From positions 62,001 to 126,000 of the forward strand of contig NZ_JGZE01000010.1 in NCBI RefSeq assembly GCF_000741285.1: DNA of 64,000 bases, read 5' to 3'. Both the position numbers and the translations under genes were made by a program. Source of the DNA: Bifidobacterium mongoliense DSM 21395 (GTDB taxonomy: Bacteria; Actinomycetota; Actinomycetes; Actinomycetales; Bifidobacteriaceae). Below, one piece after another: positions 55,235 to 60,909 of the stretch. The notes below the pieces were generated by a model. It was not told the origin of the DNA and ran no database searches. It saw only the letters and a list, made by a program, of their open reading frames with translations. Each line of letters opens with the position of its first letter. Position 1 is the first letter of the stretch.

Positions 55235-58096
55235 TCACTCCTGCGGCGCATCGCCCCCCGGTTGCTCACCGGGGCCCTGCTGCAGCGAACTCGTCTCACC
55301 GCGCAGGAACGCCAACACCTGCTGCAGATCCTGCGGCTGTACGAGAACCTCGCGCGCCTTGGATCCTTCCGACGGTCCGACCACACCATGCGATTCGAGC
55401 AAGTCCATGAGACGGCCCGCCTTCGCGAATCCGACCCTGAGTTTGCGCTGCAGCATCGAGGTCGACCCGAACTGCGTGGTCACCACGAGTTCGGCGGCCT
55501 GCAGCAGCACGTCGAGATCGTCTCCGATGTCCTCATCGGGTTCGGCGGCGTGCTGTTCGGCCTCCTTGGCCATGCGCTCGATATCCTCACGGTAATGAGG
55601 CTTGCGCTGGGTCCGCACGGCGTCGACCGCCTTGCGGATCTCCGACTCACCGACCCATGAACCCTGCACGCGCAGAGGCTTGGCCGACCCCATGGGCAGG
55701 AACAGCGCGTCGCCCTGGCCGATCAGGGTCTCGGCGCCGACCGTGTCGAGGATGACGCGCGAATCCGTGGCGGACGAGGTCGCGAAGGCCAGGCGGGACG
55801 GGATATTCGCCTTGATGAGACCGGTCACGACGTCCACCGAAGGCCGCTGGGTGGCGAGGACGAGGTGCACGCCGGCCGCTCGTGCCAGCTGAGTGATGCG
55901 CTGGATGGAGCTCTCCACGTCGTTCTTCGCGATCATCATGAGATCCGCCATCTCGTCGACCACGACCAGCAGGTACGGGTACGGGGCGACCTTGCGGTTG
56001 GATCCTTGGGGAGCGTGGACCTTGCCCGCGCGAACGGCCTCGTTGAAATCCTTGACGTGCCGGAAACCGAAGAACTGCAGGTCGTCGTATCTGGCATCCA
56101 TCTCCTTGACCACCCACTCCAAGGCCTGCGAGGCCTTCTTGGGATCGGTGATAATGGGAGTGAGCAGATGGGGTATGCCGGCGTAGGCCGACAGCTCCAC
56201 GCGCTTGGGGTCGACGAGGATGAGCCGCACCTGCTCGGGGGTGGCCCGCATGATGATGGAGGTGAGCATCGAATTGATGAAGCTGGACTTACCGGAGCCG
56301 GTCGCGCCGGCCACCAGCAAATGGGGCATCTTGGTGAGATCCGCGGTGACGAAATGTCCCTCCACGTCCTTGCCGACGCCGGCCAGCATGGGGTTGGGGT
56401 CGTTCATCGCCTCGTCGGAACGCAGCACGTCACCGAGATGGACGATCTCGCGGTCAACGTTCGGAATCTCGATGCCGATCGCCGACTTGCCGGGAATCGG
56501 GGACAGGATGCGCACGTCTGAGCTCGCCACGGCATAGGCGATGTTGCGCTGCAGATTGGTGACCTTCTCGACCTTGACGCCCGGGCCGAGCTCGACCTCA
56601 TACTGGGTGACCGACGGGCCGCGCAGGAACCCGACGACCTTCGCGTCGATATCGAACTGCTGGAACGTGGAAGTGAGGGCGCGGATGACGTTGTCGTTGG
56701 CCGGGGTGCGCACCGCATGCGGCTGGCCTTTGACCAACAGGTTCGTATCGGGCAGCCGGTACGGCGGCAGGACTCCCGGGGCACCCTCCTCATCTCCCGT
56801 CGCTCCGTCGGCCGGATGCGTATCGGTGGAAGCATTCCCGCCGGATGGCGACGACACCGCAGCGTCCGGTCCTATCTCACCGGTCTGTGTATTGACCATG
56901 GTCCGGTCGCCACTCGCATCATCGGTCGTGGGGCGCGAACCCGTTCCATATCCGTCTCCGTCGGTGGATCCAGAGGCACCGGCGAATCCACCGACGGGGG
57001 AACCGACCGTAGCCCAGGGATCGGTTGCCGGCGACGCCGTGCGCGTGGGCAATACCGTCGTGGCCGACTCCCCCACGGGCAAGGCTCCGGAGAACCGCTG
57101 CGGCAACGTGTCGTCGCGCACCCGTGCGGCCAACAGCTGGGTCTCCGCGGCTTCGCCGTGCTGGCGTGCGGCCTTGGCGAAGGCCGTGTCGTTCTCATAC
57201 CGGTCAAGGCCGGTGTCCTCGCCGCCCCGCTTGCCTGAGGACAGCTTCGCCATAAGGCGCCGCCACAGGCCGGGGCGCTGCAAGTCATCGTCGACGGCAT
57301 CGCCACCCGCCTCGTCATGGGAAGGCACGCCCTGCGCGAAGGACAGGGTGCCGTCGCCGACGCGAACCTCGTTGGGGAACTGCTCGGCGCCCGCCGTGGC
57401 CCCGGCATCGTCCGCACGACGCGTGATGCCGAGCAGCGACCGGACCCGGTCGGGCACCTCATTGACATGGATGCGGGTAATGAGCAGGAGAGAAAACAGG
57501 ACGGTGACCGCGAAGATCACCATGGCAAACCCCTTCGAAAGCCCCCAGGCCAACGGCGAACCAAGCACGAAGCCGAATAACCCGCCGGCCTGCTGCAGCA
57601 TGGTCATGTCCATGCCACGGATGTCGGAGGCGACGATAACGTCGACCATCGAACAGATGGAAAACAGCAACAGGCCCCAACCGGTCACGACCTTGGGATT
57701 CTCGGCCTCATCGCCGCTGTTGCGCATGAGACGGATCGCCAGGTAGGTCAGCAACACCGGCAGAACCACGCTCATCACGCCGAATGCCCCCGATGCCAGG
57801 GCATGCAGCGCCCGACCGAGCGCGCCATCGACGCGGAACCATTCGGACGCGCAGAACAGGATGGCCAGCACCAGAAGGATGAAGCACCACCCGTCCGTGC
57901 GGTTGTCCGGGTCGTACTCACCCACACCGCCTATGGTCCGCACGACCTTACCCAGACCCCTTGGCAGGGCGAGGAGGATCTTATGCCATACCGGTTCGGG
58001 GCGTTGCCCGTCCGAATCGGTGCGTTTCGCCGACCCCGATGCGCCGGAGCGCGGGGATGTTGATCGTGAGTTGCGTGAGGGTGCCGTTCGTGCCAT
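55235..58096 (-). CDS. ftsK: DNA translocase FtsK
   Basis: 953-residue FtsK/SpoIIIE translocase. Four transmembrane helices lie in residues about 60-220. A Gly/Asp/Thr-rich linker (about 250-460) follows. The motor domain has Walker [11 protein letters not shown] (near residue 595) and [13 protein letters not shown] (Walker B). A C-terminal winged-helix gamma domain ([26 protein letters not shown]) reads polarity sequences on DNA. It moves chromosome termini through the septum. The ATG at 58129 is only 18 bp from the divergent fic gene; I prefer ATG 58096, although no strong ribosome-binding site marks either. Confidence 0.93.
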
Positions 58097-58147
58097 AACG
58101 GGACCGATTCTACCGGCTCCCATTCCCATCGGCTATCATGGCACGGT

Positions 58148-58960
58148 ATGACACCTGCGGAACGTGCGAGCGCAGTCGCATTTGCACTGAAGAACTGCGC
58201 ACTGGGCAATCTGTCTCCCGACGAGGCCACGTTGCAGGCCGCCCGGTTGTATGAGCATGAGGGCGGAGATCCGGCCCGGCTCCTCATGGCCGCGGGACGG
58301 CACGCGCCGAGCGCCATCTTCGCACGGACCGTCGCACTCAATGAACACGGATGGCGTGGCAGCGGGGATCTCAAGGAGCTGCAGGCCATCCACCTGGCGC
58401 TCTTCGACGGTGTTCACGAGGATGCCGGGAAGCTGCGCACCAAAAACGTGAAGGACCACGAAACCGACTCCGGCGCGGTGACTCGCCGTGTGAACGGCGG
58501 CCTGAACGGCGGCCTGAACGGCGCTGTCGACGCCAAGGACGCCGTAATCGCCTCGGGACCGCTCGACGACGATCCCCAGGCCTTCTTCCCCGCGAACCTC
58601 ATCACGACCGGAGCGATGAACATCTCGACCGAACTCGCCGAACAGCGTAACCTGCGCAGCCTGGATCGCGCCGTGTTCACGCACGCCCTGGCGAAGATCT
58701 ACGACGAACTGGGCTATCTGCACCCGTTCAACGGCGGCAACGCGATGGTGCTGCGTATCTTCGCATCCCGCCTCGCCCATGACGCCGGATGGGACCTCGA
58801 CTGGGGCGAGGTCACCCGCGAGCGCTATCGGAAGGCCAGGCGACAGGCCTGCCGCGGGGACATCACCGGATTCGAATCCCTGTTCGCCGACATCCAACGT
58901 CCGGCCAATCCGACGCGAGTCTTCCTCATCGCGGGCTGGGACCAGGGCCCGGCGCACTGA
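58148..58960 (+). CDS. Fic/DOC-fold protein with a degenerate catalytic motif
   Basis: 270-residue Fic-family protein. HEDAGKLRTKNV matches the conserved AGxxRTxNV strand region. The catalytic loop is HPFNGGNAMVLR, where the canonical form is HPFx[D/E]GNGRxxR. The His and final Arg remain, but the Mg-binding acidic residue is Gly, and the GNGR Gly and Arg are Ala and Met. Normal AMPylation is therefore doubtful. A low-complexity insert (about residues 105-145) contains NGGL repeats. TATCAT lies 8 nt before the ATG, so the mRNA may be leaderless. Divergent from ftsK, convergent with miaA. Confidence 0.75.
   Translation: MTPAERASAVAFALKNCALGNLSPDEATLQAARLYEHEGGDPARLLMAAGRHAPSAIFARTVALNEHGWRGSGDLKELQAIHLALFDGVHEDAGKLRTKNVKDHETDSGAVTRRVNGGLNGGLNGAVDAKDAVIASGPLDDDPQAFFPANLITTGAMNISTELAEQRNLRSLDRAVFTHALAKIYDELGYLHPFNGGNAMVLRIFASRLAHDAGWDLDWGEVTRERYRKARRQACRGDITGFESLFADIQRPANPTRVFLIAGWDQGPAH
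58493..58528. repeat. 12-bp tandem repeat in fic
   Basis: Three units aacggcggcctg (third copy diverged) encode the NGGLNGGLNGAV insert of the Fic-fold protein. Confidence 0.7.
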
Positions 58961-58979: not shown

Positions 58980-60080
58980 CTATTCGTTGACGCCGCAGGC
59001 TTGGTTCATGCCACCATCAATCCGGTTCGTGCCATCATCGGCCCGGTTGGCAGCGCCGTCAGCAACATCGCCCAGGTGGTGGGAGGTGAAACCGTCGGCT
59101 TCGGCATCGCGGGCATCGTACTCCCCCGCATCGGCGCTCATGACGATTCCAAGCGCCTCGTCGACCAAGGTGGGCCTCAATGCCTGGAGCCAATGGATCC
59201 TCGGATCTCTGCCGAACCAACCCATCTGCTTGCGGGCCAGACGTTTCGTCAGGCGCGCGATCTCGGCATAGGCCGCGTCCTCGTCGATCTCGCCGTCGAG
59301 GAACCGCGCGATCTGCGGATACCCCAGCGCACGGGACGCGGTCGTACCCAGACGTTCACGCAATCGTTCGACCTCCCGCGTGAATCCCAGCGCACGCATC
59401 TGGGCCGTGCGGCGTTCGATGCGCTCGTCAAGCAGGTCGCGCGGCAGGTCGAGGCCGATCTGCACGGCGGGCATGACATAGTGGTACCGCGGCAACGACG
59501 CCGAATACGGGCGTCCGGTGATGGCGATGACCTCGAGGGCCCGTATCGTCCGCCGGACATTGTGCGGGTCCATGCGGCGCGCCGCTTCGGGGTCGCGATC
59601 CATCAACTCGTCGAACAACAATCCGGGACCTTCGCTCTCGGCGCGTCGCTCCAAGCCCTCCCGGATGGCGGCGTCGGTGGCGGGAAACGAGATATCGTCG
59701 ATGGCGGCGCGGGCGTACAGGCCCGATCCCCCGACCAGGATGGGCCGGATGCCGCGGCGCTGCAGATCCGCGATGCACGTTCTGGCGAGTCCTTGGAAAC
59801 GCGCCACGCTCATGGCGTCCTCGGGATCGATGACGTCGAGAAGATGGTGGGGCACGGCCGCACGCTCCTGCGCGGTGGGCTTGGCCGTACCGACGTCCAT
59901 CTGACGGTACATCTGATAGGCATCGGCGTTGACGATCTCGGCCCGTTGCCCACGTGCGGCCAACGCCCGGGCGAGTCCTATGCCCAACCCGGTCTTGCCC
60001 GAGGCGGTCGGACCGATGATCGACACCACCTTGGCGCGCCGTTCCTGGGTGTGCGTATCGAGACCTCGCTGCTCTTCCAT
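58980..60080 (-). CDS. miaA: tRNA dimethylallyltransferase
   Basis: 366-residue enzyme adding a dimethylallyl group to A37 of tRNAs that read UNN codons. The P-loop is [11 protein letters not shown]. Other blocks are [30 protein letters not shown] and [13 protein letters not shown]. The last 50 residues are a low-complexity tail with heptapeptide repeats such as [14 protein letters not shown], coded by 21-bp tandem repeats, beyond the family's usual end. Confidence 0.94.
59003..59065. repeat. 21-bp tandem repeat at the miaA 3' end
   Basis: Three 21-bp units starting ggttc/ggttg. They encode heptapeptide repeats in the MiaA C-terminal tail. Confidence 0.65.
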
Positions 60081-60162
60081 ACCGGCGATACTAGCGGGGT
60101 GAGTGAACCACCCGGCATATGTGCACCCAGGGCCTTCTCAGCACCGGCGTTATGATGGTGCC

Positions 60163-60909
60163 GTGATACTCGACCGACATGACCGAATCAACACCACAGA
60201 AATAGCCGCACGACTCAGGGGGCTGCAAGCAGGGGAAACGGGCTTTCCCACCGCGGAGATCGACAAGTTCGTCGATCTCATGCAGGTCTACGAGGGCGCG
60301 ATGTATGAGATCAGCACGAAGCTGGACATCCTGGACGGCGAATTCCAGGTCAGATTCGAACACAATCCCATCCACCATCTCGAGCGCCGGCTCAAATCCG
60401 TCAACTCGATCATCGGCAAGCTGGAACGCAAGAATCTGCCTGTTTCAGTCGAATCGATCAAGGACCATCTGTTCGACGTTGCGGGCATCCGCGTCATCTG
60501 CAACTATCGTGACGACGTGTATTCGGTGTCGAATTATCTGTCCGGGCAATCCGACATCCAGGTGCTGCGGGTGAAGGACTACATCAAGAACCCCAAGCAG
60601 AACGGTTATCGCAGCCTGCACGTCATCTATTCGGTGCCGGTCTTCCTCTCATCCGGGGCATACTACACACCCGTCGAGGTCCAGTTCCGCACCGTTGCCA
60701 TGGACTATTGGGCGAGCCTCGAGCATGCCCTGCGATACAAGGCCGACCTTCCCGACGCCCGGTTCGCCGAGCATTCCCAGACGCTGCTGGACTGCGCACG
60801 CAGCCTGCAGAACGTCGAGGCGCAGATGCAGAACATCCACCGCGACATCAATGGTGCGCCGCAAAGCGAGCAGACGCCGGAATCCAAGGCCAACGGCATC
60901 AAAGATTGA
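60163..60909 (+). CDS. small alarmone synthetase (GTP pyrophosphokinase)
   Basis: 248-residue single-domain (p)ppGpp synthetase of the RelQ/RelP type, with no hydrolase domain. Motifs are EHNPIHHLERRLKSVNSI, DVAGIRVICNY, RVKDYIKNPKQNGYRSLHVIY, VEVQFRTVAMDYWASLEH. The start is GTG 60163, 6 nt after a TATGAT -10, with no ribosome-binding site; an earlier ATG 60103 is upstream of the promoter. Works beside the long Rel enzyme at 16.9-19.2 kb. Confidence 0.88.
   Translation: MILDRHDRINTTEIAARLRGLQAGETGFPTAEIDKFVDLMQVYEGAMYEISTKLDILDGEFQVRFEHNPIHHLERRLKSVNSIIGKLERKNLPVSVESIKDHLFDVAGIRVICNYRDDVYSVSNYLSGQSDIQVLRVKDYIKNPKQNGYRSLHVIYSVPVFLSSGAYYTPVEVQFRTVAMDYWASLEHALRYKADLPDARFAEHSQTLLDCARSLQNVEAQMQNIHRDINGAPQSEQTPESKANGIKD

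What the first reader, a model, noticed from the sequence alone, without database searches (positions are those of the whole stretch)
58148..58960. Fic-fold protein whose catalytic loop has lost key residues
The loop reads HPFNGGNAMVLR. The acidic metal ligand, and the Gly and Arg of GNGR, are replaced, while the His and last Arg remain. The rest of the fold is intact and the gene is flanked by essential genes (ftsK, miaA). It may be a pseudoenzyme, use another cofactor, or act as a scaffold.
Basis: partly seen in the sequence, partly recalled or inferred. Interest (0 to 1): 0.55.

Follow-up and report, generated by a model that had tools for sequence, protein, structure and literature searches.

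The report
Disarmed Fic toxin-antitoxin fusion in bifidobacteria
This bifidobacterial gene encodes a toxin-like protein and its antitoxin joined into one chain, with the usual enzyme signature missing in every relative read, while its far end stays nearly unchanged, so it probably now works by binding a partner rather than by the usual chemistry.

Summary
The altered loop HPFNGGNAMVLR is real and is not strain-specific decay: 0 of 95 distinct intact orthologues have canonical HxFx[D/E]GNGRxxR. The first Arg is lost in 95 of 95; the acid remains in 13. Selection is purifying (median dN/dS 0.26, 374 pairs).

(1) Residues 1-52 are homologous to FicA/VbhA antitoxins, so this is a one-chain toxin-antitoxin pair with both halves altered. 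(2) The target-docking flap is replaced by a variable linker. (3) The last 20 residues are the most conserved region, ending GPAH in 95 of 96, yet AlphaFold2 does not fold them confidently.

Best explanation: a domesticated pseudoenzyme, locked by its own antitoxin helix, acting by protein binding, with the tail as docking motif. Anatomy and loss of the AMPylation residues are shown by sequence; the scaffold role is inferred and no partner is known. His is kept in 91 of 95, so another chemistry is not excluded. Non-canonical and antitoxin-fused Fic domains are known from Bartonella effectors (PMC8401265).

The parts
58148..58960 (+). Gene of the degenerate FicA-FicT fusion protein, 270 aa
   Evidence: Pfam Fic 29.1 bits
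58134..58139 (+). TATCAT, -10-like hexamer ending 8 nt before the start codon; suggests a leaderless transcript
   Evidence: sequence; TANNAT with a 5-9 nt spacer in 75 of 95 orthologues, 1.05 expected by shuffling
58148..58303 (+). Residues 1-52: FicA/VbhA-like antitoxin domain
   Evidence: hhalign 96.9% against bifidobacterial FicA segments; PF18495 in orthologues, not in the window's own copy; helices 3-19, 26-38, 42-49
58193..58210 (+). Residues 16-21 NCALGN, aligned with the inhibitory motif [S/T]xxxE[G/N]; the Glu is Gly in this copy
   Evidence: alignment; Glu/Asp in 81 of 95 orthologues
58448..58582 (+). Residues 101-145: variable linker where canonical Fic proteins have the flap hairpin
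   Evidence: entropy 2.48 bits; residues 106-128 and 130-136 below pLDDT 50
58721..58756 (+). Residues 192-203: altered Fic loop HPFNGGNAMVLR
   Evidence: 0 of 95 orthologues canonical
58898..58957 (+). Residues 251-270: near-invariant C-terminal tail ending GPAH, not folded with confidence in the models
   Evidence: entropy 0.32 bits; pLDDT 43 for residues 261-270, 40 for the last block in a second orthologue
55235..58129 (-). ftsK, divergent neighbour (context)
   Evidence: Pfam FtsK_SpoIIIE 1.3e-64
58980..60080 (-). miaA, convergent neighbour (context)
   Evidence: Pfam IPPT 1.1e-73

Best explanation
The gene is a domesticated class I FicTA toxin-antitoxin module. A FicA/VbhA-like antitoxin helix bundle (residues 1-52) is fused to the N-terminus of a FicT-like Fic core (about 53-250) [shown by sequence and profile comparison]. 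Determinants of AMPylation have been lost: the first Arg in all orthologues, the acidic metal ligand, the second Gly and the ribose-contacting Ser in most, and the target-docking flap [shown by sequence and prediction; loss of activity is inferred]. The second Arg is invariant and the antitoxin Glu/Asp is kept in 81 of 95, which fits a retained inhibitory salt bridge: a core clamped by its own antitoxin helix [inferred]. What selection now preserves is the N-terminal helix, the reshaped loop region and above all a 20-residue C-terminal tail that does not fold with confidence in the predicted monomer. Most likely the protein is a non-catalytic binding module whose tail docks on a partner or in the old cleft [inferred; partner unknown]. 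It is probably made from a leaderless transcript [inferred from promoter spacing].
For: 0 of 95 canonical motifs. R1 0, acid 13, G2 24, N 83, H 91, R2 95 of 95; position 220, which I align with the ribose Ser, is Gly in 88 and Ser in 1 of 95; residue roles from PMC8401265 section 12. 23 degenerate rows separate from 19 canonical Fics at 100/100 support. Antitoxin domain. Fold: VbhT of the VbhT/VbhA complex is the top Foldseek match, E 1.8e-8, and VIA Z 20.9, rmsd 2.6, 165 aligned. Purifying selection, median dN/dS 0.264 over 374 pairs. Tail entropy 0.32 bits against 2.48 in the flap-equivalent; tail pS 0.365 is like other regions (0.361-0.419), so the constraint is on the protein. Tail not folded with confidence in two models. 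Precedent: BepC, a non-canonical Fic with no enzymatic activity found, binds GEF-H1 (PMC8401265 passage).
Against: His is kept in 91 of 95, more than a pure scaffold seems to need. A degenerate Fic in Campylobacter fetus is still toxic through its His (PMC5651007 passages). The acid is present in 13 of 95, though in 12 of these the next Gly is Cys. The salt-bridge Glu/Asp is absent in 14 of 95, the window's own copy included. VbhA matches are below Pfam's cut-off in every fused gene listed (best 22.8 bits against 25.9), and 11 of 14 control genomes also gave matches at E up to 1 there (none over the cut-off). The tail's low pLDDT may reflect the shallow, near-one-genus alignment. No partner or phenotype is known, and 46 of 112 congeners lack the gene (tally).
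Confidence: 0.55

Rival explanations
1. The protein is still an enzyme with altered chemistry (different donor, metal-independent transfer or hydrolysis) that uses the conserved His.
For: His 91, R2 95, Phe after HP 95 of 95; the aromatic at the end of the flap-equivalent region is kept (residue 147: F 82, Y 13 of 95). Degenerate C. fetus Fic2 is toxic and needs its His (PMC5651007 passages).
Against: R1 lost in 95 of 95; G2 carries a side chain in 71 of 95, which PMC8401265 section 12 says would interfere with nucleotide binding; Gly at the ribose-Ser position in 88 of 95; flap lost; His replaced by Arg in 4 of 95 with the rest kept.
Confidence: 0.2
2. It is an antitoxin or decoy that neutralises canonical FicT toxins, through its FicA-like domain or by occupying their partners.
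For: FicA-like N-terminus; Fic1 of C. fetus, a Fic protein with its own inhibitory helix, neutralises Fic2 (PMC5651007 passages); canonical Fics occur in the genus.
Against: No association between carrying this gene and having a further Fic-profile match: 26 of 66 carriers against 14 of 46 non-carriers in the genus, p = 0.42 (tally, test; not every further match was listed or checked for its motif). The domain is fused and, in the model, part of one compact fold. The inhibitory Glu/Asp is absent in 14 of 95.
Confidence: 0.12
3. It is a deAMPylase: antitoxin Glu plus Fic His reverse an AMP modification, as in the Fic-1-AntF complex.
For: His 91 and Glu/Asp 81 of 95; Fic-1-AntF needs AntF Glu28, and a Fic-1 His mutant does not support the reaction (PMC13327609 passages).
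Against: Metal ligand mostly lost, R1 lost in all, flap lost; Glu/Asp absent in 14 of 95 including the window; no co-occurrence with other Fics (p = 0.42).
Confidence: 0.05
4. A decaying former toxin without function.
For: Many catalytic determinants are degraded; the gene is absent from 46 of 112 congeners (tally); one orthologue (G141) is split into two frames.
Against: 95 of 96 distinct orthologues are intact; dN/dS 0.26; tail and N-terminus nearly invariant; conserved promoter spacing.
Confidence: 0.03

Closest known systems
Class I FicTA module (VbhT/VbhA of Bartonella schoenbuchensis, EcFicT/EcFicA)
   Same: Fic core fold (Foldseek E 1.8e-8; VIA Z 20.9, rmsd 2.6, 165 aligned); antitoxin domain homologous to VbhA/FicA with the inhibitory motif in register.
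   Different: Antitoxin fused in cis; canonical motif and flap missing, as is the DPY segment seen in bifidobacterial FicTs; a near-invariant C-terminal tail is present.
Class II Fic proteins (inhibitory helix N-terminal in the same chain, e.g. FICD)
   Same: One-chain arrangement with the inhibitory helix first; the model aligns over residues 1-270 with FICD entries such as 6i7j, Z 17.8, rmsd 3.0, 206 aligned.
   Different: Sequence points to FicA plus FicT; motif degenerate in 95 of 95; FICD both AMPylates and deAMPylates (PMC13327609 passage).
Non-canonical Bartonella Beps (BepC; Bep3/1, Bep3/2 and Bep4 with an N-terminally fused antitoxin)
   Same: Non-canonical motifs in about half of the Bep Fic domains, a binding function for BepC, and fused antitoxin copies in a few (PMC8401265, passages and section 12).
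   Different: Beps are secreted effectors with BID domains and keep PFxxGN strictly; here G is Cys in 13 and N is Asp in 12 of 95, Pfam finds no BID domain, and the gene is chromosomal beside housekeeping genes.
Degenerate Fic2 of Campylobacter fetus
   Same: Degenerate Fic motif with a His that matters (PMC5651007 passages).
   Different: A toxin neutralised in trans that lacks its own inhibitory helix.
Fused FicA-FicT ORFs of other bifidobacteria (L193, L194, L195)
   Same: Antitoxin and Fic in one ORF (both Pfam domains shown for L195).
   Different: Loops HPFREGNGRTQR (HLFREGNGRSQR in L195); they group with canonical Fics, not with this family, so the fusions look independent.

Membership tests
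Fic/Doc fold family (PF02661) | Pfam gathering score and Fic fold | tested here: met
   29.1 bits against 24; 69 of 69 orthologues match at E up to 1; VbhT structure Z 20.9
AMP-transferring Fic enzymes | HxFx[D/E]GNGRxxR signature | tested here: not met
   0 of 95; R1 0 of 95
AMP-transferring Fic enzymes | beta-hairpin flap that docks the target | tested here: inconclusive
   region variable, pLDDT below 50, and no strand pair listed there in either model; prediction only, and flap tips can be disordered in crystals too (PMC5033356 passages)
AMP-transferring Fic enzymes | AMPylation activity | not testable with these tools
   needs an assay
Class I FicTA module | antitoxin of the VbhA/FicA family | tested here: met
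   hhalign 96.9%, score 47.5 against at most 14.1 in 100 column shuffles; PF18495 in 12 of 69 at E up to 1, best 1.1e-5, and 13 of 26 at E up to 10, best 5.8e-7. Against: the window's own copy gives no match, and fused genes listed stay below the cut-off
Class I FicTA module | antitoxin encoded by a separate small gene | tested here: not met
   same ORF in the window and in the 95 intact orthologues
Class II Fic | inhibitory helix with [S/T]xxxE[G/N] N-terminal to the core in the same chain | tested here: inconclusive
   position and helix fit; motif altered: N at the Ser position in 93 of 95, Glu/Asp in 81 of 95, mostly A or S after it
Doc-type Fic kinases | HxFx[D/N][A/G]NKR loop (motif recalled) | tested here: not met
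   no Lys or Arg at the R1 position in 95 of 95
Bartonella Bep effectors | Fic plus BID domain | tested here: not met
   only Fic found by Pfam in the window's protein
Bartonella Bep effectors | secretion by a type IV system | not tested
   -

The most novel reading that the evidence does not exclude
A toxin and its antitoxin were fused, disarmed and kept as a bifidobacterial docking factor: the old AMPylation cleft, clamped by its own antitoxin helix, has become a binding groove, and the near-invariant C-terminal peptide ending in GPAH (slotting into that groove or reaching a partner) is the functional site.
Probability: 0.4. Interest if true: 0.65.

Novelty: new variant of a known kind. Interest (0 to 1): 0.5.

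Why it matters
Fic proteins are commonly annotated as AMPylators by fold. This family is a genus-level lineage in which both the toxin and the antitoxin half have been rebuilt and the strongest constraint has moved to a C-terminal peptide, so 'Fic family protein' or 'cell filamentation protein' would mislead. If the tail is a docking motif, one short peptide can be used to pull out a partner, which makes the domestication of a toxin-antitoxin pair directly testable in a harmless gut genus.

Tried and rejected
Strain-specific decay: rejected, 0 of 95 canonical. Functional link to ftsK or miaA by position: not supported as general, since 7 of 68 named loci have neither gene in the fetched stretch (four of these looked at, two of the seven stretches cut short by a contig end), and in non-carriers ftsK usually lies near miaA without a Fic remnant (32 genomes searched; 30 loci read, ftsK in 26, fic at E up to 0.01 in 0; in a few the gap is 0.5-0.8 kb, translated without a Fic seen by eye). 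Pairing with other Fics: no association (p = 0.42). Tail shared with another protein of this genome: only the gene itself was found. PDB profile search with the N-terminal domain: a designed repeat protein (E 0.00099) and unrelated enzymes came first; the antitoxins of 5eu0 and 5nh2 only at E 0.56 and 0.67, not significant alone. PF18495 over 112 genomes of the genus: separate FicAs well over the cut-off, the fused genes listed only below it (best 22.8 bits, E 2.6e-4), and 11 of 14 control genomes with a match at E up to 1, none over the cut-off. So the antitoxin claim rests chiefly and the best hits. PADLOC gives PDC-S04 models (best 5.2e-31), unexplained candidates there; I read them as Fic-fold matches and not as evidence of defence (inference). 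History: on a miaA tree of 61 carriers and 30 non-carriers the label needs at least 14 changes, 9 forced by well-supported branches; a single-gene tree with long branches cannot tell repeated loss from gain by recombination. Orthologues further out: in 396 genomes sampled from the order, the best match outside the family was 144.4 bits, in the range of ordinary Fics.

Dropped rows and redone counts: L101 (canonical, outside the genus) was left out of A1. The split G141 orthologue was left out of the 95. The 96 carrier genomes are my reading of the rows by bit score (lowest intact 305, split G141 235, next match 124.5); one search gave 96 distinct proteins from 184 loci. The regular expression missed the asteroides loops, and that was wrong; both were redone. 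A2 was superseded by A3. In one search, 28 of 30 loci gave a FicA segment by a motif pattern, and one with unknown residues was dropped, leaving 27. In one search the 95 were picked by their GPAH ending; one search shows that the only one of 96 without it is the split G141.

Full report
WHAT IS THERE. The gene at 58148-58960 (+) encodes a 270-residue protein between ftsK (-) and miaA (-). Pfam Fic/DOC matches above its cut-off (29.1 against 24 bits). NCBIfam's nearest models are the E. coli-type Fic (PRK10347) and VbhT, both well below their cut-offs. The closest solved structures by sequence are Bartonella Bep and VbhT Fic domains (5eu0, E 3.1e-17; 3shg, E 1.6e-14).

IS THE ALTERED LOOP FIXED? 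Yes. A scan of named genomes gave 69 loci: 68 bifidobacterial and one outsider (L101) with a canonical loop. A profile search of 189 Bifidobacteriaceae genomes gave 96 carriers by a clear score gap: lowest intact orthologue 305 bits, a split one 235, next match 124.5 (my tally: 66 of 112 in the genus, 22 and 8 in two further genera of the family). Reading 184 loci gave 96 distinct proteins, one of them split. Among the 95 intact ones, none has HxFx[D/E]GNGRxxR. His is kept in 91 (Arg in 4), the acid in 13, Asn in 83, G2 in 24, R1 in 0 and R2 in 95; R1 has become Met in 88. In 12 of the 13 with an acid, the following Gly is Cys. The Ser that contacts ribose in known structures (PMC8401265 section 12) aligns, by my reading, with residue 220: Gly in 88, Ser in 1.

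A SECOND HALF THAT WAS MISSED. The AlphaFold2 model (pLDDT 85, pTM 0.82) has three helices before the Fic core. Pfam's antitoxin VbhA matches 12 of 69 full-length orthologues at E up to 1 (best 1.1e-5) and 13 of 26 isolated N-termini at E up to 10 (best 5.8e-7), though not the window's own. Against 27 bifidobacterial FicA segments gathered from PF18495 matches, the N-terminal profile of 26 orthologues aligns over 47 columns with probability 96.9 and score 47.5; 100 column-shuffled versions reached at most 14.1. The alignment sets N16-x-x-x-(E/D)20 on the antitoxins' S-x-x-x-E. Glu/Asp is kept in 81 of 95, is Ser in 13 and Gly in this window. So the protein is a FicA-FicT fusion in which both halves have left the standard. 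Results against it: the fused genes listed stay below PF18495's cut-off (best 22.8 against 25.9 bits), and in the PDB the antitoxins appear only at E 0.56-0.67.

WHAT IS CONSERVED NOW. Mean column entropy is 0.32 bits in the tail (251-270), 0.57 in residues 1-20, 0.64 in 187-222, and 2.48 in the flap-equivalent 101-145. Of 96 distinct proteins, 95 end in GPAH and the other is the split one. The tail is not folded with confidence: pLDDT 43 for residues 261-270, and 53 and 40 for the last two blocks of a shorter orthologue, with a low-confidence helix drawn in the first of these. No hairpin is listed in the flap-equivalent region of either model; in Fic enzymes the flap docks targets (PMC8401265 and PMC5033356 passages). 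Selection is purifying: median dN/dS 0.264 over 374 pairs with dS 0.05-0.8; the tail has pN 0.054 with ordinary pS 0.365. Residues 1-20 also have reduced pS (0.232), so part of their conservation may be at the nucleic-acid level. A TANNAT hexamer ends 5-9 nt before the start codon in 75 of 95 (1.05 expected by shuffling), and 10 of 95 have a Shine-Dalgarno-like pentamer, which suggests a leaderless transcript.

HISTORY. In a tree of the Fic core, 23 degenerate rows form one side of a branch against 19 canonical rows, support 100/100. Fused FicA-FicT ORFs with canonical-type loops also exist in bifidobacteria (L193-L195; domains shown for L195), but they group with the canonical Fics. Of 68 named loci, 59 have both ftsK and miaA in the fetched stretch, 2 have one and 7 have neither. 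In 30 non-carrier loci read around miaA, ftsK was found in 26 and a Fic remnant in none (32 genomes searched). On a miaA tree of 61 carriers and 30 non-carriers the label needs 14 changes, 9 forced. The gene is accessory, perhaps lost many times, yet strongly constrained where kept.

HOW IT MOST LIKELY WORKS. In Fic AMPylators the two Arg of the motif bind the outer phosphates, G2 must have no side chain, the acid takes part in Mg binding (PMC8401265 section 12), and the second Arg pairs with the antitoxin Glu (PMC5033356 passage). Here R1, G2 and the acid are mostly or wholly gone, while R2 and, mostly, its antitoxin partner remain. That fits a core kept in its locked, antitoxin-bound form as a scaffold. 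The strongest constraint lies in a peptide predicted to be free, so I take the tail as the functional contact. These steps are inference. Against them stand the kept His (91 of 95) and Fic2 of Campylobacter fetus, degenerate yet toxic through its His (PMC5651007 passages). A deAMPylase role as in Fic-1-AntF (PMC13327609 passages) seems unlikely without metal ligand and flap. A role as antitoxin for other Fics is not supported by co-occurrence (a further Fic match in 26 of 66 carriers against 14 of 46 non-carriers, p = 0.42; tally, test).

KNOWN OR NEW. Non-canonical motifs and fused antitoxin copies are both described in Bartonella Beps, and BepC shows that a non-canonical Fic can act by binding (PMC8401265, passages and section 12; the BepC papers PMC7842960 and PMC7842913 seen only in the search listing). 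My searches for bifidobacterial Fic proteins and for degenerate or fused Fic (two searches listed only part of their hits) showed no paper on this family by title or abstract start. A B. breve transcriptome paper reports a 'cell division protein Fic' (BBRE_0750) induced two-fold (PMC6955684 passages); whether it belongs here I did not test. I call this a new variant of a known kind.

Noticed in passing
L001 and L002 (own genome, contig C2): Two Fic copies with canonical loops, about 4.5 kb apart, look broken: beside an intact-looking FicA (59 aa, VbhA 6.7e-13) the FicT's N-terminal segment and core lie in separate ORFs, and the other copy lacks its N-terminal part.
   Followed up: partly
window 60103-60909 (+): A 268-aa RelA_SpoT-domain protein (6.4e-33) next to miaA; it looks like a small alarmone synthetase (name recalled).
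   Followed up: no
L193, L194, L195: FicA-FicT fused in one ORF with canonical-type loops in other bifidobacteria, apparently independent of the degenerate family (domains for L195).
   Followed up: partly
window 58493-58522: In-frame short repeat coding NGGLNGGLNG inside the variable linker, in this copy but not in the other 68 aligned orthologues.
   Followed up: no
L265 (G141): The one orthologue of 96 split into two reading frames.
   Followed up: no
L087-L089, L091-L095, L097, L100: Asteroides-group orthologues read HPFADCDGMTLR or close variants: an acid is present at the metal position (His in L094), but GN has become CD.
   Followed up: partly
L096, L098: Orthologues of Bifidobacterium sp. 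ESL0682 and ESL0763 in which the Fic His is Arg while much of the rest is conserved.
   Followed up: partly
L075-L080, L083: Clade in which the gene lies away from ftsK and miaA; the new neighbours were not identified.
   Followed up: partly
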